A stretch of DNA of 64,000 nt, taken from the NCBI GenBank assembly GCA_949152475.1, contig OX424564.1, forward strand, positions 39,864,165-39,928,164, written 5' to 3'. The notes under the pieces were generated by a model. That model searched no databases. It was not told where the DNA came from and saw nothing but the letters and a program-made list of their open reading frames with translations. Positions 3,301 to 63,651 of the stretch are shown one piece after another. Position 1 is the first letter of the stretch. Each line of letters starts with the position of its first letter. The translations under genes were made by a program, and so were the position numbers. The DNA comes from Terebella lapidaria (Eukaryota; Annelida; Polychaeta; Terebellida; Terebellidae).

Positions 3301-3560
3301 GCTACTGCTACTGCTATTGCTACTCCTCCAAGGGCTGGTATGGGAGACGGACGCTACTGCTATTGCTACTCCCCCAAGGACTGGTCTGGCAGACGGACGC
3401 TACTGCTACTGCAATTGCAACTGCTACTCCAAGGTCTGGTCTGGCAGGCGGACGCTACTGCTACTGCTATTGCTACTGCTACTCCAAGGTTTGGTCAGGG
3501 AGGCGGACACTACTGCTTCTGCTATTGCTAATGCTACTCCTACCAGCCTTGGTGTGGGAG
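360..3560 (+). repeat. CTACTG-rich modular minisatellite, plus arm
   Basis: About 60 units of 49-58 bp share the core CTACTGCTACTGCTATTGCT. The core is joined by three spacer classes: one with CCCCAGCTTGAWCC and GGCCGGGA, one with CTCCAAGGGCT and GTGGGAGACGGA or GGCAGGCGGA, and one with CTCCAATGTGTGGTCTGGGA. The classes alternate irregularly. All three plus-strand frames stay open for hundreds of codons, reading poly-Leu, Ala-Thr or Tyr-Cys. This follows from the lack of stops in the unit and is not evidence of a protein. Confidence 0.9.
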
Positions 3561-3784
3561 GCATACGCTACCCTCATATGGTACTAGAATTATCTTGTAA
3601 AGTAATTGGTTCATTCCATATCATTTTCGATGTCGGCCTACCTCGACGTTACTCGTCCGCATTACCCTCAATATAGTACTAGAATTATCTTGTAAACTAA
3701 TTGGTTCATTCCATATCGTTTTCCATGTCGGCCCACCTGAACGTACTCGTCCACACTATTCTCCGTATAGTACTAGAATTATCT

Positions 3785-3905
3785 TGGAAAATGATATGGA
3801 ATGAACCAATTAGTTTACAAGATAATTCTAGTACTATATTCAGGGTCATGCGGACGAGTAACGTCGAGGTGGGCCGACATGGAAAATGATATGGAATGAA
3901 CCAAT
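3785..3905 (-). repeat. Inverted satellite monomer
   Basis: Within the otherwise head-to-tail array, one monomer plus part of the next reads as the reverse complement (ATGATATGGAATGAACCAAT, then ACAAGATAATTCTAGTACTA). It forms a near-perfect palindrome with its neighbours. Confidence 0.85.
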
Positions 3906-6300
3906 TATTTTACATGTTGGCCCACCTGAATGTTACTCGTCCACACTATTCTCCGTATAGTACTAGAATTATCTTGTAAACTAATTGGTTCATTCCATAT
4001 CATTTTCCATGTCGGCCCACCTGGATGTTACTCGTCCGCATGACCCTGAATATAGTACTAGAATTATCTTGTAAACTAATTGGTTCATTCCATATCATTT
4101 TCCATGTCGGCCCACCTGAATGTTACTCGTCCACACTATTTGCCGTATAGTTCTAGAATAATCTTGTAAACTAATTGGTTCATTCCATATCATTTTCCAT
4201 GTCGGCCCACCTGGATGTTACTTGTCTGCAATGCCCTCAGTATAGTACTAGAATTATGTTGTAAACTAATTGGTTCATATCATTTTCCCTGTCGGCCCAC
4301 CTCCATGTTACTCATCCGCATTACCCTCAGTATAGTACTGGAATTATCTTGTAAACTAATTGGTTCATTCCATATCATTTTCCCTTTCGGCCCACCTCGA
4401 TGTTACTGGTACGCAGTACCCTCAGTATAGTACTAGAATTATCTTGTAAACTAATTGGTTCATTCCGTATCATTTTCCCTGTCGGCCCACCTCGATGTTA
4501 CTGGTACGCAGTACCCTCAGTATAGTACTAGAATTATCTTGTAAACTAATTGGTTCATTCCATATCATTTTACCTGTCGGCCCACCTGGATGTTACTTGT
4601 CCGCATTCCCCTCAGTATAGTACTAGGATTATCTTGTAAACTAATTGGTTCATCCCATATCATTTTCCCTGTCGGTCCACCTCGATGTTACTGGTACGCA
4701 GTACCTTCAGTATAGTACTAGAATTATCTTGTAAACTAATTGGTTCATTCCATATCATTTTACCTGTCGGCCCACCTGGATGTTACTTGTCCGCATTACC
4801 CTCACTATAGTACTAGAATTTCTTGTAAACTAATTGGTTCATTCCATATCATTTTCCCTGTCGGCCCAGCTCGATGTTACTGGTACGCAGTACCCTCAGT
4901 ATAATACTCAAATTATCTTGTAAACTAATTGGTTCATCCCATATCATTTTCCCTGTCGGCCCAGCTCGATGTTACTGGTACGCAGTACCCTCAGTATAAT
5001 ACTCAAATTATCTTGTAAACTAATTGGTTCATCCCATATCATTTTCCCTGTCGGTCCACCTCGATGTTACTGGTACGCAGTACCCTCAGGATAGTACTAG
5101 AATTATCTTGTAAACTAATTGGTTCATTCCATATCATTTTACCTGTCGGCCCACCTGGATGTTACTTGTCCGCATTACCCTCAGTATAGTACTAGAATTA
5201 TCTTGTAAACTAATTGGTTCATTCCATATCATTTTCCCTGTCGGCCCACCTCGATAATTACTGGTACGCATTACCCTCAGTATAGTACTAGAATTATCTT
5301 GTAAACTATTTGGTTCATTCCATATCATTTTCCCTGTCATCCCACCTCGATGTTACTGGTACGCAGTATCCTCAGTATAATACTCAAATTATCTTGTAAA
5401 CTAATTGGTTCATATCATTTTCCCTGTCGGCCCACCTGGATGTTACTCGTCCGCATTACCCTCAGTATAGTACTAGAATTATATTGTAAACTAATTGGTT
5501 CATTCCATATCATTTTCCTAGTCAGCCCACCTCGACGTTACTGATCCGCATTACCCTCAGTATAGTAGTTGAATTATATTGTAAACTCATTGGTTCATTC
5601 CATATCATTTTCCATGTCGGCCCACCTGGATGTTACTCGTCCGCATGACCCTCAGTATAGTACTAGAATTATCTTGTAAACTAATTGGTTCATTCCATAT
5701 CATTTTCCATGTCAGCCTACCTCCATGTTACGCGTCCGCATTACCCTCGGTATAGTACTAGAATTATGTCGTAAATTAATTGGTTCATTCCATATCATTT
5801 TCCCTGTCGGCCCACCTCGATGTTACTCGTCCGCATTACGCTCAGTATAGTACTAGAATTATCTTGTAAACTAATTGGTTCATTCCATATCATTTTCCCT
5901 GTCGGCCCACCTCGATGTTACTCGTCCGCATTACCTTCATTCAGTATAGTACTGGAATAATCTTGTTAACTAATTGGTTCATTCCATATCATCTTCCCTG
6001 TCGGCCCAGCTCGACGTTACTCGTATGCATTACCCTCAGTATAGTACTAGAATTATCTTGTAAACTAATTGGTTCATTCCATATCATTTTCCCTGTCGGC
6101 CCACCTCGATGTTACTGGTACGCAGTACCCTCAGTATAGTACTAGAATTATCTTGTAAACTAATTGGTTCATTTCATATCAGTTTCTCTGTCGGCCCACC
6201 TCGATGTTACTGGTACGCAGTACCCTCAGTATAGTACTAGAATTATCTTGTAAACTAATTGGTTCATATCATTTTCCCTGTCGGCCCACCTGGATGTTAC

Positions 6301-7636
6301 TCGTCCGCATTACACTCAGTATAGTACTAGAATTATCTTGTGAACTAATTGGTTCATTCCATATCATTTTCCATGTCGGCCCACCTGGATGTTACTCGTC
6401 CGCATTACGCTCAGTATAGTACTAGAATTATCTTGTAAACTAATTGGTTCATTCCATATCATTTTCCCTGTCGGCCCAGCTCGACGTTACTCGTACGCAT
6501 TACCCTTAGTATAGTACTAGAATTATATTGTAAACTAATTGGTTCATTGCATATCATTTTCCCTGTCGGCCCACCTCGATGTTACTCGTCCGCATTACCT
6601 TCATTCAGTATAGTACTAGAATTATCTTGTAAACTAATTGGTTCATTCAATGTCATTCTCCATGTTGGTGCACCTCGATGTTACTCGTCCCATTACCCTC
6701 AGTATATTACTGGAATTATCTTGTAAACTAATTTGTTCATTCAATATCATTTTCCATGTCGGCCCACCTCGATGTAACTAGTCTGCATTACCCTCAGTAT
6801 AGTACTAGAATTATCTTGTAAACTAATTGGTTCATTCCATATCATTTTCCATGTTGGCCCACCTCGATGTTACTCGTCCGCATTATTCTCCGTATAGTAC
6901 TAGAATTTTCTTGTGAACTAATTGGTTCATTCCATATCATTTTTCCTGTCGGCCCACCTGGATGTTACTCGTCCGCATTACACTCAGTATAGTACTAGAA
7001 TTATCTTGTGAACTAATTGGTTCATTCCATATCATTTTCCATGTCGGCCCACCTGGATGTTACTCGTCCGCATTACGCTCAGTATAGTACTAGAATTATC
7101 TTGTAAACTAATTGGTTCATTCCATATCATTTTCCCTGTCGGCCCAGCTCGACGTTACTCGTACGCATTACCCTTAGTATAGTACTAGAATTATCTTGTA
7201 AACTAATTGGTTCATTGCATATCATTTTCCTTGTCGGCCCACCTCGATGTTACTCGTCCGCATTACCTTCATTCAGTATAGTACTAGAATTATCTTGTAA
7301 ACTAATTGGTTCATTCAATGTCATTCTCCATGTCGGTGCACCTCGATGTTACTCGTCCCATTACCCTCAGTATATTACTGGAATTATCTTGTAAACTAAT
7401 TTGTTCATTCAATATCATTTTCCATGTCGGCCCACCTCGATGTAACTAGTCTGCATTACCCTCAGTATAGTACTGGAATTATCTTGTAAAGTAATTGGTT
7501 CATTCCATATCATTTTCCATGTTGGCCCACCTCGATGTTACTCGTCCGCATTATTCTCCGTATAGTACTAGAATTATCTTGTAAACTAATTGGTTCATTC
7601 CATATCATTTTTCCTGTCGGCCCACCTGGATGTTAC
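6301..7636 (+). repeat. Higher-order repeat: 668-bp block of seven monomers, twice
   Basis: The same series of seven distinguishable monomers, including the rare variants TACACTCAGTATAG, TTCATTCAGTATAG, TCATTCAATGTCATTC and GTATATTACTGG, occurs from 6301 and again from 6969. The copies differ by only a few bases. This implies recent block amplification. Confidence 0.8.
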
Positions 7637-7779
7637 TCGTCCGCATTACCCTCAGTATAGTACTAGAATTATCTTGTAAACTAATTGGTTCATTCCATAT
7701 CATTTTCCATGTTGGCCCTTTTCGCAGAAAGACATGACAATATCTTAACAAGTATGTTGTTTAATATAGAACTGGAAAC

Positions 7780-8785
7780 GTTCATAGCAAGGCTGTTCCA
7801 GTCTCAGATCAAGCCGGGGAGTGGCAGTAGTGATAGCAGTAGCAGTAGCATCCCGGTCTCAGATCCAGCTCAGGAGTAGCAATAGCAGTAGCGTCCGGTT
7901 CCCAGATCAAGCTGGGGAGTAGCAGTAGCAATAGCAGTAGCATCCCGGTTTCAGATCAAGCTGAGGAGTAACAGTAGCAATAGCAGTAGCAGTAGCATCC
8001 CGGTCTCAGATCCAGCTCAGGAGTAGCAATAGCAGTAGCGTCCGGTTCCCAGATCAAGCTGGGGAGTAGCAGTAGCAATAGCAGTAGCGTCCCGGTCTCA
8101 GATTAAGCTTGGGAGTAGCAGTAGCAATAGCAGTAGCATCCCGGTTTCAGATCAAGCTGGGGAGTAACAGTAGCAATAGCAGTAGCAGTAGCGTCCCGGT
8201 CTCAGATCAAGCTGGGGAGTAGCAGTAGCAATAGCAGTAGCGTCCCAGTCTCAGATCAAGCTGGGGAGTAGCAGTAGCAATAGCAGTAGCGTCCCGAATT
8301 CAGATCAAGCTGGGGAATAACAATAACAATAGCAGTAGCGTCCTGGTCTCAGATCAAGCTCAGGTGTAGCAGTAGCAATAGCAGTAGCGTGCGCTTCCGA
8401 GACCAGACATTGGAGGAGTAGCAGTAGCAATAGCAGTAGCAGTAGCGTCCCTGTTTCAGATCAAGCTGGGGAGTAGCAGTAGCAATAGCAGTAGCGTCCC
8501 GGTCTCAGATCAAGCCGGAGAGTAGCAGTAGCAATAGCATCCCGGTCTCAGATCAAGCTCAGGTGTAGCAGTAGCAATAGCAGTAGCGTGCGCTTCCCAG
8601 ACCAGACATTGGAGGAGTAGCACTTAGCAAGAGCTGTAGCAGTAGCGTCCCAGTCGTTAAACAAGTATGGCAATAGCAGTAGCATACGCTTTTGCTACTG
8701 TGTGCTATTGTGTGGTCTGGGATGTACAAGTATAGCAGTAGCAATAGCAGTAGCATCTGATTTTTGCTACTGTATGCTATTGTAA
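7780..8785 (-). repeat. CTACTG-rich minisatellite, minus arm
   Basis: About 20 units read AGCAGTAGCAATAGCAGTAG with spacers such as CAGATCAAGCTGGGG and GACCAGACATTGGAGGAG. These are the reverse complements of the first and third spacer classes of the plus arm at 360-3560. Near the outer end the repeat decays into TTTTGCTACTGTATGCTATT. Confidence 0.88.
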
Positions 8786-14403: not shown

Positions 14404-16636
14404 TTAAAAATTTTGATGCTTCTTGTAAGCTGTTGCAATTTTAATATCACCATCAGTATTTTTGTTGAGTTGTTTCATATGCTTGTTAACAATTTGGCCC
14501 GAAAGAGCACCTGTTTTTGAGAAGGGTACTATATACACCAGGTCGAATTTATTTTTACTTTTGTTCAAAGGGTCATACTTTGTAATTTTTTTAACGTTGA
14601 GGTCATGAGGTTCGAAAGTGCCTAGAGTATCAATCCAACAATATTCCCTTTCAAGTCGCCATTGTTTGTTTAAAAGTTCATCACCAAGATCGGAAACCTG
14701 TTCAATTGGTAAAAGAGAAAAACATTCAATGGAAAGTTCAGTTTTGCTGTGAACTTTAGATAGATGACTGTATAATGCATTTTCCTCATTGCAGCTAGTT
14801 ATTGCAGCACGGTGACGATTGTTTCTGAATTTGAGTGATTTACCGGTTTCACCTACATATTGTTTTTCGCAAAGCTTACAAGTGTATAGATAAATTATAT
14901 TTTCTGAGTTGCAATCCAAAGCTGAGTTGATTGAGTAGGTTTGTTCAAAAACTGATCTTGAGAAATTTTGACAATTTGGAACTAAATGACATGTCTGACA
15001 TTGTCTAGAATTACAAGGTTTTGAACCTGATGAGCTGGAAGTGGGCAATTGAAAATCAGCACCTATTCTTTTCTCACTGTTTAGAATTCTCAATGTTTCA
15101 TTCATTATTTTGTGAAGCCAACATTTTGAATAGTTACATTTCGAAAGTGCCTTGAATAATGTTTGGCAAGCTGATTCAACATCATCTGGGTATGACCAAA
15201 TTCGGAAAAATCGAAAAACTTGGGACTTGATTAGTCCTTTATAAGTGTGATTTGGATGAAAAGAGAGCTTATGCAGCAACTGATGAGTATCCGTTGGTTT
15301 GAAGGAAACTTTTGCTTTTAATGTGTTGTCTTTGCTCCTGAACAGAGTAGTATCCAGAAAATTAACTGAATCAGTACTAATTTCAGCTTTGAACTTGATT
15401 GATGCCCTATGAGAATTGAATATTTCGAGAAACTGATTAAATTTGGAAATGCCGTGTGGCAAAATGAGGAAAATGTCATCTAAATACCTATAATAGCAAT
15501 CTGGTTTGAATAGACACTTTTGTAAAGCTTGCTTTTCAAATGTAGCCATATAAATATCTGCATAATGAGGTGCATATTTCTGACCCATGGCTGTGCCTGA
15601 AACTTGTAGGAATGTCTTGCCGTCAAATTCAAAGTCATTACATTTAAGTGAAAATTCCAATAATTCTATTATACCTTTGAATAGTTCGTTGTGTTTCAGA
15701 GTCGGGAATGCATTTTTAATTGCTTGGATACCTTCTTCATGATTTATATTAGTATACATACTTTCAACATCTAAAGTGATTAGTAAAGAATTTGGATCTA
15801 GTTCAAGCCCTCTATCTAAAAAGTCATACGTGTTTTTTATTTATGACGGATGCTTATTTGCTCGATCTTTTATATATGAATCAATATACATGGCTACTTT
15901 TTCAGATTCCCTACTACAATCAGAAACAATTGGGCGCCCTGGAGGCATTACATTTGGAATTGGCCAGGAGTCTTTGGGTTTATGAATTTTAGGTAGCATA
16001 ATATAAAATCTTCTTTGACGAGGACGTTCTGGTGGTAAAAGAAATTGGAATACTTTTTCAGAAAGGCATCCAGAATTGCGTAATCCTTTCAAAATTAGTT
16101 ATTTTTTCTGAATTTTCTGGGTAAAGAGGAGTGTCAATTTCTCTGTAGTGAGCTGGATTGTATAAATGACGAAAGCCTTCATTAATATTATTTTGCTTAT
16201 CCATAATTATGACTGCACTACCTTTATCTGCTTTTTTAATTACCAAGTCTACGTTATTTTGTAAATCCTTTATAGTTTTATATTCCATTTCCGTTAGGTT
16301 TTTGGTTTCTGGTTGAATTTTCAAATTTTCAATTTCTTTAGATATTGCCGAAATGCAATCTAAAACAGGCTTGTCAATCATGGAACTGGGTGGAGTCCAG
16401 GTAGATTTTGGAGTGAATTTTGATCTATTTGTAAATGAATTTGGACGGTGAGAAAAATAATTTTGAAGTTTGAGTTTTCTACCAAAATCTTGCGCAGCTT
16501 GTTCAATTGAATCCAATGTTATTTTGGGTGTGGGAACAAATGTCAAACCACGATTTAGAAGAGCGATTTCTGTGTCCAAAAGTGTAAATTTGGAAAGGTT
16601 TACAACATTATTAGTCGTACTTGAGTTCGGTGGACT
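14404..16636 (-). pseudogene. Penelope-type reverse transcriptase with GIY-YIG endonuclease
   Basis: Penelope-like proteins copy RNA with a telomerase-related reverse transcriptase and nick DNA with a GIY-YIG domain. In order, the sequence shows LLNRGLTFVPTP, ADKGSAVIIMD, a PKIHKP stretch, PGRPIVSD, DVESMYTNI, SGTAMGQKYAP and YRYLDDIF. A cysteine linker CNSRQCQTC follows, then the GIY-YIG core IIYLYTCKLCEKQYVGET. The CxxC inside the GIY-YIG core recalls Neptune-type members. The reading unit is open from just 11 bp past the stop of the upstream ORF and has no ATG before SSMIDK, so coupled translation or a fusion is likely in intact relatives. Two breaks are visible, near 16.07 and 15.84 kb. 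About 740 codons fits the family. Confidence 0.92.
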
Positions 16637-28093: not shown

Positions 28094-28777
28094 TCAGGGT
28101 TCATGTTCTTGGATGTTTTTATAAGACACACGATTAATTTTTCTGTTATCCAATATTGGTTCATCACACACAGAGTATTCTCCTAACTTGTAGCCTGCTG
28201 GCTGTTCCTGTCTGTACTTTATATGCGAGTAATAGATGTCAAAGCCCATAGACACCACATTGTCGTAGAGGACTCGGAACCGGGTGGGCAGGAACATAAA
28301 GTTGAACATTTGTGCCGGCGGCCAGACCAGCATCTCTGCCTTCAGCAGAGCTGGACCCTTGTCACGGAGCTCAGCAGCAACCTGTTTTCTTGTAGCGCCC
28401 TCCGCATAACCCACCATGAGCAAGAAGGCGAACACACAGATTGGCGAGATGATGACCTGATCAGCGATGACCTTCTTGACCACGACCCGCATTGTGGTGC
28501 CAGGCAGGACCCTGTCCAGGAACTGGTACCAGCAGTGACAGATTGGCCCCACCACGAGACCCGAGCTACCGACATTGATGGTTCTCCTGACATCCCAGTG
28601 ACGACGCTTGCAAGAGAAAGTCTCATTGTACTGCTGCAAGAAGTCGCCTGCTCCCGAGAACCCGACAGACACCGCTGTGTTGGTCAGCAGCAGGTAGCGA
28701 GTGAACAAACTCTTGGTTTTCTTACGCAGGGAAGCAGCCCAAGAGATACGTGACACCTTCTTTAGCACACTGGACAT
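28094..28777 (-). CDS. MPV17L2: MPV17L2-like inner-membrane protein (Mpv17/PMP22 family)
   Basis: A 227-residue Mpv17/PMP22-family protein. Family members are four-helix membrane proteins, and MPV17L2 sits in the mitochondrial inner membrane and helps mitoribosome assembly in vertebrates. Visible are a basic N-terminus (residues 1-27), LLLTNTAVSVGFSGAGDFLQ (29-48), RRHWDVRRT (58-66), GPICHCWYQFLDR (77-89), DQVIISP (106-112), a hydrophobic helix to 124, and the signature VWPPAQMFNFMFLP (151-164) with FRVLYDN after it. The human protein is 206 residues long. The fit is better to MPV17L2 than to MPV17 or PXMP2. The ATG at 28777 is the first in frame, because a splice acceptor lies 77 bp upstream and the ATG near 28792 is in another frame. 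The coding part is in one exon. Mobile elements lie within 55 bp of the stop and about 240 bp of the acceptor. No AATAAA is seen before the element, so the 3' UTR may read into it. Confidence 0.92.
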   Translation of the reverse strand: MSSVLKKVSRISWAASLRKKTKSLFTRYLLLTNTAVSVGFSGAGDFLQQYNETFSCKRRHWDVRRTINVGSSGLVVGPICHCWYQFLDRVLPGTTMRVVVKKVIADQVIISPICVFAFLLMVGYAEGATRKQVAAELRDKGPALLKAEMLVWPPAQMFNFMFLPTRFRVLYDNVVSMGFDIYYSHIKYRQEQPAGYKLGEYSVCDEPILDNRKINRVSYKNIQEHEP

Positions 28778-28854
28778 TTTTGCTGGTCATGTCTGAACTC
28801 CCTGCTGCATTCGGTGCTAGGATGTCTTCTTGAACATAACTATGATACCATAGT

Positions 28855-41455: not shown

Positions 41456-44400
41456 TAACTTTTTTTAACTTTAACTTTAACTTTATTAACTTGGTATAGC
41501 GCCTTCCTATACCACGTTTCGGTGGCGCTGTACAATGAATACAAATTACATATTATTATTACAGTGGTACAAAATACAATACATAATACAATCGAGGATA
41601 TGTACATGTACATTCTAGAGACAGCATGATCTGAATAAGTGAGTTTTGAGTCTACTTTTGAAACATCCGATATCAGACTGACATCTAATATCATTAGGTA
41701 GCTGATTCCACCACTGTGGCCCAATACTGCTGAATGACCTTGCTGCGAAAGTTTTCAGCTTTGTGAACGGGACAGAAAGTTTTTTCTGTACTCCCGCCGA
41801 ACGTAGCCCAGACCTTCTGACTGGAGCTGGTGACAAGAGAGTCTGGAGGTACGCAGGAGCTTTCCCCGTGACTGAGAGGAAGACGAGACACAATACCTTG
41901 TATTGTATTCTCTCACGTATTGGGAGCCAGTAAAGTTCTTTACGACAGCTGCTGGCACTATCGTACTTATTCGCCCCCTTTACCAGTTTCGCGGCCATAT
42001 TCTGGACTCGCTGGAGTTTATCCAAGTCAACGTTGGGCACACCTGCATAGACAGCATTACAATAATCGAGGTGGGACAGAACCAGTCCTCTCACCAGCGT
42101 GTGACAGGCGTCTTCAGTCAGCAGATGTCTGATTCGTTTGATCCGAAGTAGATTAAACATTGCGGTCCTACACTTGCTCTGAATCTGGTCCTTGAATGAG
42201 ACTTTAGAGTCAAGTAGAACACCCAGGTATTTGATACAGTCACTTATCCCGATTTCTTGATCGATCAGAACAATCGATCTTTTGTCACACTTCAGGAGCT
42301 GTCGACTGGAGCCGGCAATCAGGATCTCCGTTTTGTCCACGTTAAGTTTCAGTCTATTTTCGTTCATCCAGTCGCAAAGACTATGGATGCATTGCTGCAA
42401 GACCGAAATAGCACTCTCTTCGCTGCCTTTATCAGATGGATGAGGATCGAAGGAGCATTTAAATATGTGGTCGTCGGCATACCCATGGACTGACACGCCG
42501 TTGGGGACCACACACTGCAGAGTACTAGCATAGCATGAGTACAATACAGGACCCAGGCAGCTTCCTTGTGGGACAGACTGATGAAGTTCTCTGGTGGTTG
42601 AGTAACCATCGTTGACATTGACTCTACAGAACCGAGGTCTCAAGTAGCTGTCAAGCCAGGACTTTGCCATACCACTTACGCCGTACCACTTCTCCAGAAC
42701 ATCCAGTGTTATGTCAAAGTCCACGGTGTCGAAAGCAGCACTCAAATCGGTAGCCACGATTACACTCAGTTTCTGGTTTTCCATGTTCCATAACAGGTCG
42801 TTGACTAACTTGACCACAGCGGTCTCACAGCTGTGGTTCGACCTGTATGCCGACTGGTATTCTGGCAATAAATTGTTCTCGTCACAGTGCTTAGTGAATT
42901 GAAGGAGAGCTGCTTTTTCCACAACCTTTGAAAGAAAGGACAGGTTGCTAACCGGTCTGAAATTTTTGTGGACGAGATCCAGACCAGCTTTCTTCAGCAA
43001 TGGCCGAACAATCGCCTCCTTCCACTTCATGGGGAATACTCCGTTCTGTAAGGAGATGTTGACGAGGTGTGTGATTGACGTCAAGATGCCATCCAGAATG
43101 TCCTTCAGTAGTTGTGCAGGCAATACGTCGAGCTCACAGCTCTTTGTCGGCATTCCACTAATGATAGATTTAACCTCTTCTTCAGATAGTGGCATGAAGG
43201 TCCCGAAACAATTCACAGCCCTGCTATTAGGTGAATACTTCGGGTAGTGGTCGAGTGCGTCGCGGATTCTCTGGATTTTACTCATGAAGAAATCAGCAAA
43301 TTCATTTGCCGAAACTTCATTACTTGCTGACGATGGCAATGGGTTTTCGTTGTTACTACCCATGATGTTGTTGATCAATCTATACAGCTTCTTGGGGTTG
43401 TTACCACATTCTGCGACCTTGTCAGACAAAACTCTGACCTTTTCGTCATTCAAGAGTCTGCTGTAATAGTTTCTCTCCTCACAAAGTGTCCGCCATTGAT
43501 CTTGCTGACGGTATTTCCTCCAGAGTTTTTCGCAGCGACGCACCTTTCGCTTCTGATCACCTATAGCGTCATTAAACCACGGCTGTTTATGACGTACTGT
43601 GATCGTCTTTGTTCTAACAGGAGCGTGATCATCCAGACATTTTGATAGAGTGAGGTCGATCTCATTGGCAATCTCGTCTGGATTGTCCAAGTCCATTACT
43701 TTTTCCAGGTTCACATCGTCGAGAAACTTCCCGATATCCATGTCTTTGATCTTCCTGCCTCTGACGGTCTTACTGACCAGGTCGGACCTGGGTATCGACG
43801 TAGTCCACATCACGAAACAGTGATCTGAAATGAACTGACCGGGGCAGACAGCGCTTATGCCGATGTGTCTCGTCGACTCAGCGAACACTAAATCCAAGGT
43901 GTTACCAAGTTTGTGTGTAGGAAAGTTCACATACTGCGTCAAGCCCAAAGCTTCCATTGCTTCATTGAATGATACAGCATCCAGATCAGCAACGTCGTTG
44001 ACGTGGATATTGAAATCGCCAGTAATTATCACATTACTGTCCGTGATAACACAGTTCGCACACCAAGGGACGAATTCGTCTAGAAAGACTGCATTTGTGG
44101 TCTTGTTTTTAGCAGAGTACGGAGGGTGATAGACACCGATGATGTTGAAGGTGCAGGACTTACTTGTGACACGCCATTTGGCATATTCAAATGACCGCAG
44201 CGTTCCTTTGTCAATTATTTTGACTTTCAGACTGTCACGATACACAAGTCCTAGACCACCTCCACTCCTATCCGATCTATTTGCTACGTCCAGTCTAAAG
44301 CCGTTCGTGTTCAGTTCACAACTTTCACGCCAGATTTTATCGTCATCGTGGCTTTTGAGCCACGTCTCCGATAGAATACACACGTCCAATTTGAACTCAT

Positions 44401-45040
44401 GAAGGATGTCTGATATTACCATGTCCTTGTTCCGACTGGTTATAGACTGTACGTTGACAGTTGACATTGTCATTCTCAAATTTTGGGCGTTGTACATGTG
44501 GTCAGTGTTGGCGCATTTGATAACATGTAAGTTTTTTAACATAACATGTTTAGCCTCTGACCTTTGCCTCCTGAGGTGCTCCTTGTTACGTCGTCCTCCA
44601 CGACTTAGTCTCCTGAATATCCGCAGCTTCCTGATGTTGATCACTGCTTCTGGATTAAGGAATTTGTATCCAGATTTGCCTTGCATTTCGTCCCGAATTC
44701 GAAGTAGTTCGTGTCGGTCATATGCATATTTGACTCTGTGTTGTTTACCAGTCTCGGCCCTCGGTCTGTCCGTGAATGCGGTGCATGCTATACGCTTCAT
44801 TGAGTCCACTGTTATGGCCCGATACACAAAAAGTTCGCCAGATGTTTCCACGTCAAATGATTTGCAAATAAGTACACAAACAACGCACAATACTGTCCAA
44901 ATCCAACAGAATCCTCTTCTATGGAACTTCACATGCACATTAAATGAATCATAGTGCTGTAACGATTCGACTTTACAGGCGAAATACTTGTTAATTAACT
45001 GATACATTTTGAATGCATTCGCTTTAGACAAGCGCTACAC
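41456..45040 (-). mobile_element. LINE with uninterrupted ORF2 (CR1/L2-like group)
   Basis: A minus-strand non-LTR element. Behind the ORF is a 3' UTR of about 150 bp, with GTATAGGAAGGCGCTATACC forming a hairpin. It ends in an (AAAGTT)n-like tail (plus strand TTTAACTTTAACTTTAACTT at 41462-41484). Tails of short repeats rather than poly-A are typical of CR1/L2-type elements. The 5' boundary is not clear. A stop lies just upstream of the frame and VIRMA exon 1 begins 290 bp away on the other strand. No separate ORF1 is seen, so the copy may be 5' truncated or may lack ORF1. Confidence 0.85.
41615..45007 (-). CDS. LINE ORF2 protein: endonuclease and reverse transcriptase
   Basis: An uninterrupted 1,130-residue ORF2p that nicks target DNA and copies the element RNA. 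The ATG at 45007 ([12 protein letters not shown]) is the first in a frame that opens at about 45037. Residues about 33-49 ([16 protein letters not shown]) form a strong hydrophobic stretch, odd for this protein class. The apurinic-type endonuclease runs at about 180-400 with VNVQSI, LSETWL (about 212), [15 protein letters not shown] and SDH (about 394). The reverse transcriptase runs at about 610-930 with [28 protein letters not shown] and GYADD (843-846). The C-terminal part has [19 protein letters not shown] and [13 protein letters not shown], with no Cys/His knuckle. The unbroken frame suggests a young, possibly active copy. Confidence 0.93.
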
Positions 45041-45328: not shown

Positions 45329-45382
45329 ATGGATGAAAGTGAATTGTTGTTTTTTGACACTTTTTCACATGATAGTGCAGAG
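45329..45382 (+). CDS. VIRMA: Virilizer/VIRMA exon 1 (coding part)
   Basis: Codes for MDESELLFFDTFSHDSAE and then a donor GTGAGA at 45383. The human protein begins MAVDSAMELLFLDTFKHPSAE, so the match covers ELLFxDTFxHxSAE. Virilizer is the large nuclear scaffold of the METTL3-METTL14-WTAP m6A RNA methyltransferase complex. It guides methylation and affects alternative splicing and 3'-end choice. The phase is 0 at the donor and joins in frame with exon 2 at 59205. The ATG context GCAAGATGG is good. The following intron is 13.8 kb and filled with mobile elements. Confidence 0.9.
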
Positions 45383-50559: not shown

Positions 50560-50825
50560 TTTTAGTGGTATACATCCCCGGGGCCGGTATTCCTTATTTT
50601 CCACCCTACAGGCCTACTAGTAAACGTAGGCCTGCGTGTACCATCAGGGAATAATTTTAAAACAATCAGAAAATTAAAACTGCTGTTTATCCAGCTGTAT
50701 ACTATAGTACATGTAGTATATAGGACGAACTGGTTCAAGAGAAGAAACTTGCGCATTTAATGAGCACGCGTGTTGCCACTGCGTGGTTGGTGCGGAGCAT
50801 GGTAGGTGCCAAACACAGAATTTTC

Positions 50826-53190
50826 GATACGCAAATGCTCTCTCAATATTGTAGCAACATCAATGAAATATTTACAGGCGATTAGTTATATCCTTATTCC
50901 GTTCATCGTACAATCAATATTCGCTCGACAAGTGAATATTTGGTCAAATTAATAATTTTTTCAGTGGACTGAATCACGTTTGTCGCACAGTGCCTTGCTT
51001 CTTGTCGATGTTTTGAAATAATAACAACACCTATGTGCATTATATGCATGTATACCGACTCAGTAGATTCCATTTAAGATTAATATCTATATCACAAAAC
51101 AAGACTGCCTATTTAAAATATTGAAAACAACAATTTTCACCACACCGTTCGCATCGCCGCCGTTTGCTGTTATTAACATGCACAGTGCATGGGAGGCACG
51201 ACGCATGTTTTTGACGAACATAGCCGTAGACGTATAGGACCGTGGAAGCAGTTTATCATTCATGGATTGAATTGGATCAGGCCATTCAGCTGTTCAGGGG
51301 GTGAACCCTCACTCAGCAGGATAACCCATGAAAGTGCACACACTTATTTCCAATGGGGTCCTGTTTGTGTTGTGTACATGCAGTATGTAGATCTAATGCA
51401 TTGTCAGAATTTCTATAGCGACTTGAAGCATATCAGCATCATTAGGGTACATTAATCAGTTTCCATGATTATGGAGCGGCAAAATATCAGCGCAAGAAGT
51501 TTTGGGTCATGTTCGTGTGATTCACCACTTCGTAACTCAGCTTACATGCATAATTGTATCCCCGAACAAAGTTCGGCGGATACTATGGATTTGGCTTCGT
51601 TGTCCGCGTCCGCAGAGATTTTCTTGTGAACGCGCTACAGGCCGCAATTCTCACCCGATCACCATTATTTTTTGCAGGCACATATATAATGGTAGGATCC
51701 CGACACCAATCGATTTTGGTTGCCGTGGCAACTGAATTGGTCGTTTGGGGACACATTTTGCATTGAAAACAGCCTGTTTGAGACACATGGCTTGTGAACG
51801 CTCTACAGATGGCAATTTTTGACGAATCTCGATAATATTTGGAAGTGTTGTTGGGAAGGGCTGTCACACGAAACCAATCGTTTTTTAGAATGATCATATA
51901 AATATTAATATGTTAGCAGCCTAACTTATTACAGAATTTTGAAATATCCATTTTGACATGTACGATCATTCCAATAGCCTGTACAATGGAAGGTAATGAC
52001 ACTGGTTTCTTGTTCAGAATGGAGAACTGAAGTTTTAGTGAAAACAGGACAATGTTACTGAATAAGTTAACATTAGTTTTACTAGTTAAGTCTATTATTG
52101 TCCACAATAAAAATAGTTAAGACGAGAAACGTTTAGTATTAAGCTCAACAAGGTGAAGGTTTTGTCCAGTACAGATTTCATGGGTGTAACTGAATAAGTT
52201 AACATTATTTTTAATAGTTAAGTCTATTATTGACCACAATAAAAATAGTTAAGACAAGAAATATTTATTATTAACCTCAACAAGGTAAATGTTTTGTCCA
52301 GTACAAATTTCATTGATGTAACCGAATAAGTTAACATTATTTTCACTAGTTAAGTCAATTATTGACCACAATAAAAATAGTTAAGTCTATTATTGACCAC
52401 AATAAAAATAGTTAAGATGAGAACTATTTATTATTAAGCTCAACAAGGTGAAAGTATGTCCAGTACAGATTTCATGGGTGTACTGAATAAGTTAACATTA
52501 TTTTTACTAGTTTAGTCTATTATTGACCACAATAAAAATAGTTAAGACAAGAAATATTTATTATTGGGCTCAACAAGGTAAAGATTCTGTCCAGTAGACA
52601 TTTTATGTCTGTAACCAAATAAGTTAACATTTTTTTTGCTAGTTAAGTCTATTAATGACCTCGATAAAAATAGTTAGGATGAGAAACAATTATTATTGAG
52701 CTCAACAAGGTTAAGGTTTTGTCCGGTATAAATTTCTGGGTGTAACCGAATAAGTTAACTTTATTTTTGCATGTTAAGTCTATTATTGACCACAATGAAA
52801 ATAGTTAAGACAAGAAATATTTATTATTGGGTTCAACAAGGTGAAGGCTTTGTCCAGTAGAGATTTTATGGCTGTGACCAAATAAGTTAACATTATTTTT
52901 TGCTAGTTAAGTCTATTATTTATCACAATAGCTTTTTATGAAAACATTGATCAACTTTTACTTTGAATTTCTACTTGAGACCATGTTTGGCACAAATTAT
53001 GAGTTAAAATATAACTTATGGTGAAAAATTCGATCTGGCTCCAATTTCGTCATCTTGAAATGCAGTTTTGGTCAACTTTTACTTTGACTTTCAACTTGAA
53101 AGCATGTTTGGCACATATTATAAGTCGAAATATAACTTATGGTGAAAAGTTCGATCTGGCTCCATTTTCTTCATCTTGAAATGCAGTTTT
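50826..53190 (+). repeat. 2,365-bp tandem duplication, first copy
   Basis: Starts GATACGCAAATGCTCTCTCA and runs to the next occurrence of the same sequence at 53191. It includes most of family C copy C2 but not its 3' end. Only about five single-base differences from the second copy were noticed (for example TGCACAGTGCATG against TGCACGGTGCATG), roughly 0.2%. Confidence 0.93.
51555..53190 (+). mobile_element. Family C, copy C2, 3' end missing
   Basis: The 5' palindrome GTATCCCCGAAC with its complement is preceded by AATT. A conserved block with GATTTTCTTGTGAACGCGCT and CGATTTTGGTTGCCGTGGCA follows, then about seven 132-bp monomers (52055-52930), then two 121-bp monomers. It is cut at the duplication junction. 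Confidence 0.78.
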
Positions 53191-56100
53191 GATACGCAAA
53201 TGCTCTCTCAATATTGTAGCAACATCAATGAAATATTTACAGGCGATTAGTTATATCCTTATTCCGTTCATCGTACAATCAATATTCGCTCGACAAGTGA
53301 ATATTTGGTCAAATTAATAATTTTTTCAGTGGACTGAATCACGTTTGTCGCACAGTGCCTTGCTTCTTGTCGATGTTTTGAAATAATAACAACACCTATG
53401 TGCATTATATGCATGTATACCGACTCAGTAGATTCCATTTAAGATTAATATCTATATCACAAAACAAGACTGCCTATTTAAAATATTGAAAACAACAATT
53501 TTCACCACACCGTTCGCATCGCCGCCGTTTGCTGTTATTAACATGCACGGTGCATGGGAGGCACGACGCATGTTTTTGACGAACATAGCCGTAGACGTAT
53601 AGGACCGTGGAAGCAGTTTATCATTCATGGATTGAATTGGATCAGGCCATTCAGCTGTTCAGGGGGTGAACCCTCACTCAGCAGGATAACCCATGAAAGT
53701 GCACACACTTATTTCCAATGGGGTCCTGTTTGTGTTGTGTACATGCAGTATGTAGATCTAATGCATTGTCAGAATTTCTATAGCGACTTGAAGCATATCA
53801 GCATCATTAGGGTACATTAATCAGTTTCCATGATTATGGAGCGGCAAAATATCAGCGCAAGAAGTTTTGGGTCATGTTCGTGTGATTCACCACTTCGTAA
53901 CTCAGCTTACATGCATAATTGTATCCCCGAACAAAGTTCGGCGGATACTATGGATTTGGCTTCGTTGTCCGCGTCCGCAGAGATTTTCTTGTGAACGCGC
54001 TACAGGCCGCAATTCTCACCCGATCACCATTATTTTTTGCAGGCACATATATAATGGTAGGATCCCGACACCAATCGATTTTGGTTGCCGTGGCAACTGA
54101 ATTGGTCGTTTGGGGACACATTTTGCATTGAAAACAGCCTGTTTGAGACACATGGCTTGTGAACGCTCTACAGATGGCAATTTTTGACGAATCTCGATAA
54201 TATTTGGAAGTGTTGTTGGGAAGGGCTGTCACACGAAACCAATCGTTTTTTAGAATGATCATATAAATATTAATATGTTAGCAGCCTAACTTATTACAGA
54301 ATTTTGAAATATCCATTTTGACATGTACGATCATTCCAATAGCCTGTACAATGGAAGGTAATGACACTGGTTTCTTGTTCAGAATGGAGAACTGAAGTTT
54401 TAGTGAAAACAGGACAATGTTACTGAATAAGTTAACATTAGTTTTACTAGTTAAGTCTATTATTGTCCACAATAAAAATAGTTAAGACGAGAAACGTTTC
54501 GTATTAAGCTCAACAAGGTGAAGGTTTTGTCCAGTACAGATTTCATGGGTGTAACTGAATAAGTTAACATTATTTTTAATAGTTAAGTCTATTATTGACC
54601 ACAATAAAAATAGTTAAGACAAGAAATATTTATTATTAACCTCAACAAGGTAAATGTTTTGTCCAGTACAAATTTCATTGATGTAACCGAATAAGTTAAC
54701 ATTATTTTCACTAGTTAAGTCAATTATTGACCACAATAAAAATAGTTAAGTCTATTATTGACCACAATAAAAATAGTTAAGATGAGAACTATTTATTATT
54801 AAGCTCAACAAGGTGAAAGTATGTCCAGTACAGATTTCATGGGTGTACTGAATAAGTTAACATTATTTTTACTAGTTTAGTCTATTATTGACCACAATAA
54901 AAATAGTTAAGACAAGAAATATTTATTATTGGGCTCAACAAGGTAAAGATTCTGTCCAGTAGACATTTTATGTCTGTAACCAAATAAGTTAACATTTTTT
55001 TTGCTAGTTAAGTCTATTAATGACCTCGATAAAAATAGTTAGGATGAGAAACAATTATTATTGAGCTCAACAAGGTTAAGGTTTTGTCCGGTATAAATTT
55101 CTGGGTGTAACCGAATAAGTTAACTTTATTTTTGCATGTTAAGTCTATTATTGACCACAATGAAAATAGTTAAGACAAGAAATATTTATTATTGGGTTCA
55201 ACAAGGTGAAGGCTTTGTCCAGTAGATATTTTATGGCAGTGACCAAATAAGTTAACATTATTTTTTGCTAGTTAAGTCTATTATTTATCACAATAGCTTT
55301 TTATGGAAACATTGATCAACTTTTACTTTGAATTTCTACTTGAGACCATGTTTGGCACAAATTATGAGTTAAAATATAACTTACCGTATTTATTCAATTA
55401 GTTCGAACAGCTAAAAATAATTAAATTTTGAAATGTTCGAATTATTAGATTCACGATAAAATCGTCCGTCAAAACGGGAAAAAACCGCAAACCCAGATTT
55501 ATCATACGCGAGTTGACAGATACCGTTCATCATGGTGATTAGAACTAGGGCTTGTACTGTACGATTGATAGGTTACCCGCAGACAACAAGCATTTTTAGA
55601 AAACTCAAAAACCTGGCTGCTGAAATCGCCCGGTAAATGTTGTTTATAATGTCACATATAATATACTAAATTCTAGTCATATTGCATTGCAATCGAGTCA
55701 CTCGAATCGGAAAAACTTCGCAAACCGCCTGGCACTCTGAGGTCCGCGCTTTCAATATTTCTGCTCCTATCATAGAGGTACATTATGACCCATCATAATG
55801 TACATCTATGGCTCATATTAGTAATTGCAAACACTGCCACCTGGCGAATATATCGCTGATTACTCATTTCGTAGTGCTGCCGCCTGGTGAGTTGTCAGTT
55901 TTGGCATCTGACAAGTTGATTTCGTTCGTTGTTTCAATCGAAATTTTGATCGTAAATTTGCCTGTTCGAACTAAACGAGTCAATTTGAAAATTATTGTCT
56001 TCAATAGTTTTTGGTGTTCGAATTATTAGAGTGTTCGAACTAATTGAATAAATACGGTATGGTGAAAAATTCGATCTGGCTCCAATTTCGTCATCTTGAA

Positions 56101-59204: not shown

Positions 59205-59317
59205 GAGCTGAATCTAGACTTGGTGCAGTTTCCTCATGCTGTGTTGATCAACGAGGTGCGAGTCATCCCTCTGGGTACTCGTGTACAGGCCGACGTCCCG
59301 GGCGGAGTCAGGCTGGG
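59205..59317 (+). CDS. VIRMA: Virilizer/VIRMA exon 2
   Basis: Acceptor CACCATAG, then 113 bp reading ELNLDLVQFPHAVLINEVRV continuing IPLGTRVQADVPGGVRLG, then donor GTAAGT at 59318. Human VIRMA has VVRFPCVVYINEVRVIPPG at this place, so INEVRVIPxG is conserved exactly. It joins exon 1 in phase 0 and exon 3 in phase 2. The last 56 bp of the exon plus the first four intron bases are the founder of the minisatellite that fills intron 2. Reading past the true donor in this frame gives TAA at once. Confidence 0.92.
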
Positions 59318-62300
59318 GTAAGTGATCCCACTGGGTACTCGTGTACAGGCCGACGTCCCGGGCGGAGTCAGGCTGGAGTAAGTGATTCCTCTGGGTACTC
59401 GTGTACAGGCCGACGTCCCGGGCGGAGTCAGGCTGGGGTAAGTGATCCCTCTGGGTACTCGTGTACAGGCCGACGTCCCGGGCGGAGACAGGCTGGGGTA
59501 AGTGATCCCTCTGGGTACTCGTGTACAGGCCGACGTCCCGGGCAGGGTCAGGCTGGAGTAAGTGATCCCTCTGGGTACTCGTGTACAGGCCGACGTCCCG
59601 GGCGGAGTCAGGCCGGGTAAGTGATCCCGCTGGGTATTCGTGTACAGGCCGACGTCCCGGGCGGAGTCAGGCTGGGTAAGTGATCCCTCTGGGTACTCGT
59701 GTACAGGCCGACGTCCCGGGCGGAGTCAGGCCGGGTAAGTGATCCCGCTTGGTATTCGTGTACAGGCCGACGTCCCGGGCAGAGTCAGGCTCGGGTGAGT
59801 GATCCCGCTTGGTATTCGTGTACAGGCCGACGTCCCGGGCAGGGTCAGGCTGGAGTAAGTGATCCCGCTGGGTACTCAGGTACAGGCCGACGTCCCGGGC
59901 AGAGTCAGGCCGGGTAAGTGATCCCGCTGGGTACTCGTGTACAGGCCGACGTCCCGGGCGGAGTCAGGCTCGGGTGAGTGATCCCGCTTGGTATTCGTGT
60001 ACAGGCCGACGTCCCGGGCGGAGTCAGGCCGGGTAAGTGATCCCGCTGGGTACTCGTGTACAGGCCGACGTCCCGGGCAGGGTCAGGCTGGGTAAGTGAT
60101 CCCGCTGGGTACTCAGGTACAGGCCGACGTCCCGGGCAGAGTCAGGCCGGGTAAGTGATTCCGCTGGGTACTCGTGTACAGGCCGACGTCCCGGGCGGAG
60201 TCAGGCTCGGGTGAGTGATCCCGCTTGGTATTCGTGTACAGGCCGACGTCCCGGGCGGAGTCAGGCCGGGTAAGTGATCCCACTGGGTACTCGTGTACAG
60301 GCCGACGTTCCGGGCGGAGACAGGCTGGGGTAAGTGATCCCTCTGGGTACTCGTGTACAGGCCGACGTCCCGGGCAGGGTCAGGCTGGAGTAAGTGATCC
60401 CTCTGGGTACTCGTGTACAGGCCGACGTCCCGGGCGGAGTCAGGCCGGGTAAGTGATCCCTCTGGGTACTCGTGTACAGGCCGACGTCCCGGGCGGAGAC
60501 AGGCTGGGGTAAGTGATCCCTCTGGGTACTCGTGTACAGGCCGACGTCCCGGGCAGGGTCAGGCTGGAGTAAGTGATCCCTCTGGGTACTCGTGTACAGG
60601 CCGACGTCCCGGGCGGAGTCAGGCCGGGTAAGTGATCCCGCTGGGTATTCGTGTACAGGCCGACGTCCCGGGCGGAGTCAGGCTGGGTAAGTGATCCCTC
60701 TGGGTACTCGTGTACAGGCCGACGTCCCGGGCGGAGTCAGGCCGGGTAAGTGATCCCGCTTGGTATTCGTGTACAGGCCGACGTCCCGGGCAGAGTCAGG
60801 CTCGGGTGAGTGATCCCGCTTGGTATTCGTGTACAGGCCGACGTCCCGGGCAGGGTCAGGCTGGAGTAAGTGATCCCGCTGGGTACTCAGGTACAGGCCG
60901 ACGTCCCGGGCAGAGTCAGGCCGGGTAAGTGATCCCGCTGGGTACTCGTGTACAGGCCGACGTCCCGGGCGGAGTCAGGCTCGGGTGAGTGATCCCGCTT
61001 GGTATTCGTGTACAGGCCGACGTCCCGGGCGGAGTCAGGCCGGGTAAGTGATCCCGCTGGGTACTCGTGTACAGGCCGACGTCCCGGGCAGGGTCAGGCT
61101 GGGTAAGTGATCCCGCTGGGTACTCAGGTACAGGCCGACGTCCCGGGCAGAGTCAGGCCGGGTAAGTGATTCCGCTGGGTACTCGTGTACAGGCCGACGT
61201 CCCGGGCGGAGTCAGGCTCGGGTGAGTGATCCCGCTTGGTATTCGTGTACAGGCCGACGTCCCGGGCGGAGTCAGGCCGGGTAAGTGATCCCACTGGGTA
61301 CTCGTGTACAGGCCGACGTTCCGGGCGGAGTCAGGCCGGGTAAGTGATCCCGCTTGGTATTCGTGTACAGGCCGACGTCCCGGGCGGAGTCAGGCTGGGT
61401 AAGTGATCCCGCTGGGTACTCGTGTACAGGCCGACGTCCCGGGCGGAGTCAGGCTGGGGTGAGTGATCCCGCTTGGTATTCGTGTACAGGCCGACGTCCC
61501 GGGCGGAGTCAGGCTGGGTAAGTGATCCCGCTGGGTACTCAGGTACAGGCCGACGTCCCGGGCAGAGTCAGGCCGGGTAAGTGATCCCGCTGGGTACTCG
61601 TGTACAGGCCGACGTCCCGGGCGGAGTCAGGCTCGGGTGAGTGATCCCGCTTGGTATTCGTGTACAGGCCGACGTCCCGGGCGGAGTCAGGCCGGGTAAG
61701 TGATCCCGCTGGGTACTCGTGTACAGGCCGACGTTCCGGGCGGAGTCAGGCCGGGTAAGTGATCCCGCTGGGTATTCGTGTACAGGCCGACGTCCCGGGC
61801 GGAGTCAGGCTGGGTAAGTGATCCCTCTGGGTACTCGTGTAGAGGCCGACGTCCCGGGCGGAGTCAGGCCGGGTAAGTGATCCCGCTTGGTATTCGTGTA
61901 CAGGCCGACGTCCCGGGCAGAGTCAGGCTCGGGTGAGTGATCCCGCTTGGTATTCGTGTACAGGCCGACGTCCCGGGCAGGGTCAGGCTGGAGTAAGTGA
62001 TCCCGCTGGGTACTCCATGTACAGGCCGACGTCCCGGGCGGAGTCAGGCTGGGGTAAGTGATCCCGCTGGGTACTCGTGTACAGGCCGACGTCCCGGGCG
62101 GAGTCAGGCTGGGGTGAGTGATCCCGCTTGGTATTCGTGTACAGGCCGACGTCCCGGGCGGAGTCAGGCTGGGTAAGTGATCCCGCTGGGTACTCAGGTA
62201 CAGGCCGACGTCCCGGGCAGAGTCAGGCCGGGTAAGTGATCCCGCTGGGTACTCGTGTACAGGCCGACGTCCCGGGCGGAGTCAGGCTCGGGTGAGTGAT

Positions 62301-63470
62301 CCCGCTTGGTATTCGTGTACAGGCCGACGTCCCGGGCGGAGTCAGGCCGGGTAAGTGATCCCGCTGGGTACTCGTGTACAGGCCGACGTTCCGGGCGGAG
62401 TCAGGCCGGGTAAGTGATCCCGCTTGGTATTCGTGTACAGGCCGACGTCCCGGGCAGAGTCAGGCTCGGGTGAGTGATCCCGCTGGGTACTCGTGTACAG
62501 GCCGACGTCCCGGGCGGAGTCAGGCTGGGGTAAGTGATCCCGCTGGGTACTCGTGTACAGGCTGACATCCCGGGCGGAGTCAGGCCGGGTAAGTGATCCC
62601 GCTGGGTACTCGTGTACAGGCCGACGTCCCGGGCGGAGTCAGGCTGGGGTAAGTGATCCCGCTGGGTACTCGTGTACAGGCCGACGTCCCGGGCGGAGTC
62701 AGGCTGGGGTGAGTGATCCCGCTTGGTATTCGTGTACAGGCCGACGTCCCGGGCGGAGTCAGGCTGGGTAAGTGATCCCGCTGGGTACTCGTGTACAGGC
62801 CGACGTCCCGGGCGGAGTCAGGCTGGGGTGAGTGATCCCGCTTGGTATTCGTGTACAGGCCGACGTCCCGGGCGGAGTCAGGCTGGGTAAGTGATCCCGC
62901 TGGGTACTCAGGTACAGGCCGACGTCCCGGGCAGAGTCAGGCCGGGTAAGTGATCCCGCTGGGTACTCGTGTACAGGCCGACGTCCCGGGCGGAGTCAGG
63001 CTCGGGTGAGTGATCCCACTTGGTATTCGTGTACAGGCCGACGTCCCGGGCGGAGTCAGGCCGGGTAAGTGATCCCGCTGGGTACTCGTGTACAGGCCGA
63101 CGTTCCGGGCGGAGTCAGGCCGGGTAAGTGATCCCGCTTGGTATTCGTGTACAGGCCGACGTCCCGGGCAGAGTCAGGCTCGGGTGAGTGATCCCGCTGG
63201 GTACTCGTGTACAGGCCGACGTCCCGGGCGGAGTCAGGCTGGGGTAAGTGATCCCGCTGGGTACTCGTGTACAGGCTGACATCCCGGGCGGAGTCAGGCC
63301 GGGTAAGTGATCCCGCTGGGTACTCGTGTACAGGCCGACGTCCCGGGCGGAGTCAGACTGGGGTAAGTGATCCCGCTGGGTATTCGTGTACAGGCCGACG
63401 TCCCGGCCGGAGTCAGGCTCGGGTGAGTGATATCGCTGGGTACTCGTGTACAGGCCAACCTGCGGGATGT
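59257..63470 (+). repeat. Exon-derived minisatellite, about 70 units of 59-60 bp
   Basis: Each unit reads GTGATCCCNCTGGGTACTCG, TGTACAGGCCGACGTCCCGG, GCGGAGTCAGGCTGGG and then GTAAGT or GTGAGT. Apart from GTC to GTG at its start, this is the end of VIRMA exon 2 with its 5' splice site. The first units (TCCCTCTGGGTACTCG) are closest to the exon. Units further on carry TCCCGCTTGGTATTCG, GGGCAGAGTC or TACTCAGGTAC. Higher-order blocks of about 1,011 bp (17 units) and 714 bp (12 units) recur. Open frames of 60-90 codons inside are by-products. Confidence 0.95.
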
Positions 63471-63564
63471 TCGCTACACTGCATCATCAATAAAATATGT
63501 AGTACTCCTGCCCTGAAATGAGTTTAGTAGAAATAGTAATGATGGTTTTTTTTCATCAATACAG

Positions 63565-63651
63565 GGCCACAAACCCATCCACATTCAAATTGGAGTTCTT
63601 CTCAAACAACTTGAGCAAGCGTGATGCATCGACTTTTCAAAAATTAGGACT
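63565..63651 (+). CDS. VIRMA: Virilizer/VIRMA exon 3
   Basis: Acceptor TTCATCAATACAG, then 87 bp giving (G)ATNPSTFKLEFFSNNLSK and RDASTFQKLG, then donor GTAAGTATA at 63652. Human VIRMA reads ETSPHTFQLDLFFNNVSK then PSAPVFDRLGSLEY, a clear match. Both borders leave phase 2, so the next exon, outside the window, should start with the last base of a Leu or Ser codon. The three exons together code for the first 85 residues or so, part of the conserved N-terminal virilizer domain. Confidence 0.93.

What the first reader, a model, noticed from the sequence alone, without database searches (positions are those of the whole stretch)
59257..63470. About 70 tandem copies of a VIRMA 5' splice site behind the real one
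Seen: the minisatellite unit equals the last 56 bp of VIRMA exon 2 plus GTAA of the intron. Nearly every unit keeps GTAAGT or GTGAGT, so the true donor at 59318 is followed by about 70 near-identical donors in the same intron. In the exon 2 frame the first unit gives TAA directly after the donor, so use of a downstream donor should yield a premature stop. Known: VIRMA is a scaffold of the m6A writer and itself affects splicing. Inference: the array could titrate U1 snRNP, feed poison-exon isoforms to nonsense-mediated decay, or set VIRMA output by repeat number. It may also simply be neutral.
Basis: partly seen in the sequence, partly recalled or inferred. Interest (0 to 1): 0.9.

Follow-up and report, generated by a model that had tools for sequence, protein, structure and literature searches.

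The report
Minisatellite of copied VIRMA splice donors
The end of a VIRMA exon together with its splice signal has been copied about seventy times into the next intron; this looks like a known type of repeat growth rather than a new regulatory device, but it offers a useful test of how cells choose one splice site among many near-identical ones.

Summary
The gene is an animal VIRMA (Pfam VIR_N, E 2e-39). Its exon 2 donor at 59318 is followed by 69 tandem units; all 70 donors read GTAAGT (53) or GTGAGT (17). The array is 97.5% of intron 2, and 39 of 69 array donors score slightly above the true one. Using any of them would bring in the stop TAA at 59319-59321.

Functional readings gain little: donor columns are no more conserved than chance gives (P 0.35), m6A-type DRACH motifs are scarce, RNA folding is ordinary, and a third of the window is tandem repeats. 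RNA data were not available.

The kind is known: amphioxus 'mirages' (PMC3087553), human ABCA7 and IFI6 donor-bearing repeats (PMC5954066, PMC4526556). Most likely it is a near-neutral minisatellite grown from the exon 2 boundary by duplication and unequal exchange, with the true donor mainly used and some leakage to the nearest copies. By analogy with ABCA7, a mild length effect and in-frame exon 3 skipping are plausible but untested. New member of a known kind; moderate interest.

The parts
45329..45382 (+). VIRMA exon 1, coding part (MDESELLFFDTFSHDSAE), donor GAG|GTGAGA
   Evidence: VIR_N match of spliced exons 1-3
59205..59317 (+). VIRMA exon 2 (113 nt), after acceptor CCATAG
   Evidence: VIR_N E 2.2e-39; human VIRMA chain 7vf2_A E 1.2e-18
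59261..59320 (+). founder segment of the repeat: last 57 nt of exon 2 plus GTA of the intron
   Evidence: TRF start 59261; alignment of exon end with 69 units
59318..59323 (+). true exon 2 donor GTAAGT; stop TAA at 59319-59321 in the exon frame if not used
59318..63457 (+). minisatellite array of 69 complete donor-to-donor units plus a partial last unit; 97.5% of intron 2
59436..60319 (+). 884-bp stretch repeated exactly 1011 bp downstream (60447-61330); holds a block of 14 units copied as a whole
63423..63428 (+). last donor GTGAGT, 142 nt before exon 3
63458..63564 (+). rest of intron 2 outside the array, with T-rich tract and acceptor ATACAG
63565..63651 (+). VIRMA exon 3 (87 nt, so its skipping would keep the frame), donor ACT|GTAAGT

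Best explanation
The array is a boundary-spanning minisatellite of the 'mirage' kind. A tandem duplication copied the last 57 nt of VIRMA exon 2 with the first bases of intron 2 (the joints share AGT), and unequal exchange or slippage then multiplied single units and blocks of units, until the array made up 97.5% of what was probably a short intron (shown: anatomy; inferred: the steps). Because the copied piece happens to hold the 5' splice site, each copy is a donor look-alike; this is a by-product, not a selected feature (inferred). Exon 2 is most likely still joined from 59318, because its acceptor and nearest donor define the exon, while donors far from the acceptor would make exons of many hundreds of bases (inferred). 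Some transcripts probably use the next one to three donors, carry the TAA at 59319-59321 and are lost to nonsense-mediated decay; a long array may also slow removal of intron 2 or favour in-frame skipping of exon 3, as in ABCA7 (inferred by analogy).
For: 70 of 70 donors and 26 unit types all align to the exon end; in the copied exon part the exon base is among the unit states in every column but 59264, so the exon fits as founder. Repeated blocks of 14 and 6 identical units, while 300 shuffles of unit order gave a longest block of 4 once and 3 or less in 299. A 123-base piece over the exon end and first unit has no match in 1-59200 (blastn-short, E up to 0.01). 21508 of 64000 bases are TRF repeats, so this genome region grows such arrays freely. 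Donor columns not unusually conserved (P 0.35). Published precedents: amphioxus globin, Adh3 and other mirages with regular splicing, ABCA7 and IFI6.
Against: Nothing here shows RNA. 39 of 69 array donors score above the true donor and the last lies only 142 nt from exon 3, so a proximal-donor or intron-defined choice would predict heavy mis-splicing, which a neutral reading must assume away. 11 of 19 unit substitutions are synonymous in the exon frame (expected 0.32-0.35, P 0.018-0.037), a weak hint that exon and array exchange sequence under coding constraint. No relative of the locus was available, so age and neutrality are not tested.
Confidence: 0.72

Rival explanations
1. Functional length-dependent brake: the array donors compete with the true donor, a set share of transcripts takes a downstream donor or skips exon 3, and array length tunes VIRMA output.
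For: 48 of 69 array donors score as high as or higher than the true one and every extension carries the TAA stop. In ABCA7 a 25-bp repeat starting at the exon 18 donor gives one-unit retention with a premature stop, and repeat length correlates with lower expression and more skipping of the next exon. VIRMA exon 3 is 87 nt, so skipping it would keep the frame.
Against: No RNA data. Donor columns not conserved beyond chance. Amphioxus mirages reported not to interfere with regular splicing. In ABCA7 the retained-unit isoform itself was not affected by repeat length.
Confidence: 0.17
2. Decoy or sponge: the 69 sites bind U1 snRNP on nascent RNA and lower free U1 or hold the transcript back.
For: U1 duplex energies of array donors are -7.2 to -12.3 kcal/mol against -11.1 for the true donor (U1 5' end recalled).
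Against: One locus per genome copy against a very abundant snRNP (recalled) makes a global effect unlikely; no conservation signal.
Confidence: 0.03
3. Assembly effect: a short array was expanded or mis-joined by the assembler.
For: An 884-bp stretch is repeated without a mismatch 1011 bp on; elsewhere intron 1 holds a 2.2-kb near-exact second copy.
Against: 26 unit types in several different block patterns (lags 11, 12 and 17 units) are hard to get from simple mis-assembly; at most the copy number would be wrong.
Confidence: 0.06
4. Repeat-coded exon or microexons: units are used as coding exons by acceptor TACAG|G and the donor.
For: 69 TACAGG acceptor-like sites in the array. Their pyrimidine content before the AG (mean 0.55) is no lower than at exon 2's own acceptor (0.53).
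Against: Stop in the exon frame, 36 of 69 units are 59 bp and shift the frame, exon 3's acceptor has the better pyrimidine tract (0.71), and donor-to-acceptor inside a unit is only 31 nt (counted).
Confidence: 0.02

Closest known systems
Amphioxus 'mirage' minisatellites (globins BflGb6 and BflGb9, Adh3: PMC3087553, section 16 read; PGBD5: PMC3902484, one passage read)
   Same: Minisatellite-like tandem duplication across an exon-intron boundary, many units holding splice signals, turnover of repeats within the cluster; lancelet PGBD5 has 60- and 108-bp repeats on splice sites.
   Different: Here about 70 units (BflGb6 has 6 and 3 in its two haplotypes), in VIRMA, filling 97.5% of the intron; species not known, and splicing not seen.
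Human ABCA7 intron 18 VNTR (PMC5954066, passages read)
   Same: Repeat begins at the exon's donor GT, a downstream unit's donor gives an extension with a premature stop.
   Different: 25-bp unit that starts at the intron, no exon part copied as far as the passages say; its length effects were measured, here nothing was.
IFI6 (6-16, G1P3) minisatellite (Turri et al. 1995: title seen as a reference; use of two downstream repeat units as donors stated in PMC4526556, passage read)
   Same: Repeat units act as extra splice donor sites of one transcript.
   Different: Unit size and details could not be read here (paper not held); there the alternative donors are said to give protein isoforms, here they would give a stop.
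[quoted passage not shown] PMC4974935, passages read)
   Same: Tandem duplication of an exon piece with splice signals.
   Different: The acceptor of intron 2 lies 107 nt outside the array, so the intron was not made in that way.

Membership tests
mirage minisatellite | tandem repeat spans an exon-intron boundary | tested here: met
   TRF array 59261-63456 begins 57 nt inside exon 2
mirage minisatellite | repeat units contain GT/AG splice signals | tested here: met
   70 of 70 donors; 69 TACAGG sites
mirage minisatellite | regular splicing is not disturbed | not testable with these tools
   no RNA data held
mirage minisatellite | length instability between haplotypes or cells | tested here: inconclusive
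   recent block duplications suggest it, but one haplotype only
mirage minisatellite | cephalochordate genome (all cases seen) | tested here: inconclusive
   no genome held for the window; repeat probes found no source; no Rfam match
ABCA7/IFI6-type donor VNTR | repeat begins at or includes the true donor and repeats it | tested here: met
ABCA7/IFI6-type donor VNTR | downstream repeat donors used in RNA | not testable with these tools
   no RNA data held
Rogers-type duplicated intron | intron ends (GT and AG) both come from copies of the duplicated segment | tested here: not met
   acceptor at 63564 lies in non-repeat sequence

The most novel reading that the evidence does not exclude
VIRMA, a scaffold of the m6A writer, is set by the length of its own donor array: longer arrays lose more transcripts to premature-stop isoforms or give more of a form lacking exon 3, and exon 2's end is kept in exchange with the array (hinted at by the excess of synonymous changes).
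Probability: 0.1. Interest if true: 0.65.

Novelty: new member of a known kind. Interest (0 to 1): 0.42.

Why it matters
About 70 near-identical donors in one intron, many scored stronger than the expected one, form a natural test of what fixes 5' splice site choice (exon definition, order of transcription, distance to the acceptor). If splicing stays clean, sequence strength alone is clearly not decisive; if it leaks, repeat number becomes a source of heritable variation in a gene of the m6A writer.

Tried and rejected
Selection on donors from unit conservation: 20 of 61 alignment columns vary, one of six donor columns among them; P of one or none is 0.35, and 0.13 for the nine columns GTRAGTGAT: rejected as evidence. 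m6A feedback through motifs in the array: 6 DRACH in 4140 bases against a mean of 42.6 (sd 6.1) in 300 mononucleotide shuffles and 18.3 per kb in 1-59200: not supported; the shuffle does not keep dinucleotides. RNA structure hiding array donors: the true donor is not predicted more open than array donors; two-unit fold z 0.31, 115 of 200 shuffles fold at least as well. Gradient of similarity to exon 2 along the array: none, Spearman 0.06, P 0.65. Similar donor arrays elsewhere in the window: none of 10 other arrays inspected holds a GTRAGT on either strand; I picked these ten from the 62 TRF rows. Species: not found; the 12 loci (17-base matches, bacterial by title) look like chance and were not used. 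No Rfam match and no tRNA in the window. Literature on VIRMA with minisatellite: 5 papers hold both terms; their listings look unrelated (I guess that other words beginning with 'virma' matched) and I opened none. Searches (12 of 51 listed; 8 of 443 listed) showed none on this in the rows listed. So I saw no report of this array, within those searches only. Donor scores use a frequency table recalled from memory for human-like donors, and U1's 5' end was recalled too. The count of synonymous changes depends on where the alignment puts the one-base gap next to the donor.

Full report
What is there. Spliced exons 1 (45329-45382), 2 (59205-59317) and 3 (63565-63651) of the window give an 84-residue start of a protein that matches Pfam VIR_N (E 2.2e-39) and human virilizer homolog 7vf2_A (E 1.2e-18). 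The gene is therefore an animal VIRMA. The species is not known: no genome is held, and repeat probes found nothing useful.

The array. On the + strand between 59201 and 63520 there are 70 GTRAGT hexamers, all within GTRAGTGAT, the first at 59318 and the last at 63423; the 69 intervals are 59 bp (36), 60 bp (32) and 61 bp (1), with 26 distinct sequences. GTAAGT occurs in 53 and GTGAGT in 17 (summed). Intron 2 is 4247 nt, of which 4140 (97.5%) are array; only 107 nt with the T-rich tract and acceptor lie beyond it. The exon end fits as founder: apart from 59264, where the exon has C and all 69 units G, the exon base occurs among the unit states in every column of the copied exon part. The exon piece begins, and the donor ends, with AGT, which suggests a duplication joint at that shared triplet (seen; inference).

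How it grew. A block of 14 identical units is repeated 17 units on, and blocks of 6 and 4 at lags of 11, 12 and 23; 300 shuffles of the unit order gave a longest block of 4 once and less in the other 299. The longest exact DNA repeat is 884 bp at an offset of 1011 bp. This is what unequal exchange gives, though assembly duplication cannot be excluded. The surroundings are rich in such growth: TRF repeats cover 21508 of 64000 bases.

Donor strength. With a recalled human-like table, the true donor GGG|GTAAGT scores 9.48; of 69 array donors, 39 score higher (CGG|GTAAGT 10.4, CGG|GTGAGT 10.07), 9 are equal and 21 lower (counts of 70 less the true one). U1 duplex energies agree: -12.2 or -12.3 for the CGG forms, -11.1 for the true donor, -7.2 for the weakest. 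Sites at or above the weakest array score occur 98 times in 1-59200 on the + strand, 1.7 per kb, against 16.9 per kb in the array. So the true site is not marked out by sequence strength, nor by predicted openness.

Consequence of using a later donor. The exon frame reads GGG at 59316-59318 and TAA at 59319-59321, so every extension has the stop; extensions to donors 2, 3 and 70 were translated and end there.

Tests for function. Donor columns are not more conserved than chance (P 0.35). DRACH motifs are scarce (6 in 4140 bases). A two-unit fold is ordinary (z 0.31). One weak signal points the other way: 11 of 19 unit substitutions within whole codons are synonymous in the exon frame (a twentieth, in the split last codon, was set aside), against 0.32-0.35 expected (P 0.018-0.037; 0.046 without the change fixed in all units). 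By third-position sites alone, 10 of 19, P is 0.065. It was one of several tests and may be chance; if real it would mean exchange between exon and array.

What is known. Tandem repeats over exon-intron boundaries were named 'mirages' in amphioxus; they are said to be length-unstable and not to disturb regular splicing although many units hold splice signals (PMC3087553, section 16 read; PMC3902484, one passage). The original Adh3 paper is not held. In human ABCA7 a 25-bp VNTR starts at the exon 18 donor; one-unit retention with a premature stop occurs, VNTR length goes with lower expression and more exon 19 skipping, while the one-unit retention itself did not depend on length (PMC5954066 passages). 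IFI6 is said to use two downstream repeat units as donors (PMC4526556 passage). The VIRMA array is thus a large new member of a known kind. It differs in size and gene.

Verdict. Observation confirmed. Most likely a near-neutral mirage-type minisatellite, with some leakage into the nearest copies. By analogy with ABCA7, a mild length effect and in-frame skipping of exon 3 are the predictions worth testing.

Noticed in passing
50821-53018 and 53187-55383 (intron 1 of VIRMA): A 2.2-kb stretch occurs twice at 99.7% identity (2198 bp aligned), itself holding 132-bp repeats; a recent duplication or an assembly effect.
   Followed up: partly
420-8589: Three adjoining arrays (units of about 52, 95 and 49 bp); the first (GCTACTGCTATT...) and the last (TAGCAATAGCAGTAGC...) look like reverse complements of each other, flanking the 95-bp array.
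   Followed up: no
41615-45034 (-): Long open LINE-type ORF (1139 codons stop to stop) with endonuclease and reverse transcriptase domains just upstream of VIRMA exon 1 on the other strand.
   Followed up: partly
14404-15840 (-): ORF with reverse transcriptase and a GIY-YIG match just under the cut-off (22.4 of 22.6 bits), as in Penelope-like elements (family name recalled).
   Followed up: no
28094-28786 (-): Single open frame with an Mpv17/PMP22 domain; as an apparently intronless stretch it may be a retrocopy (inference).
   Followed up: no
59318-63457: 39 of 69 array donors carry C at -3, in two sequence contexts (GGCCGG and GCTCGG) that need different changes, both scoring above the exon's own donor.
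   Followed up: partly
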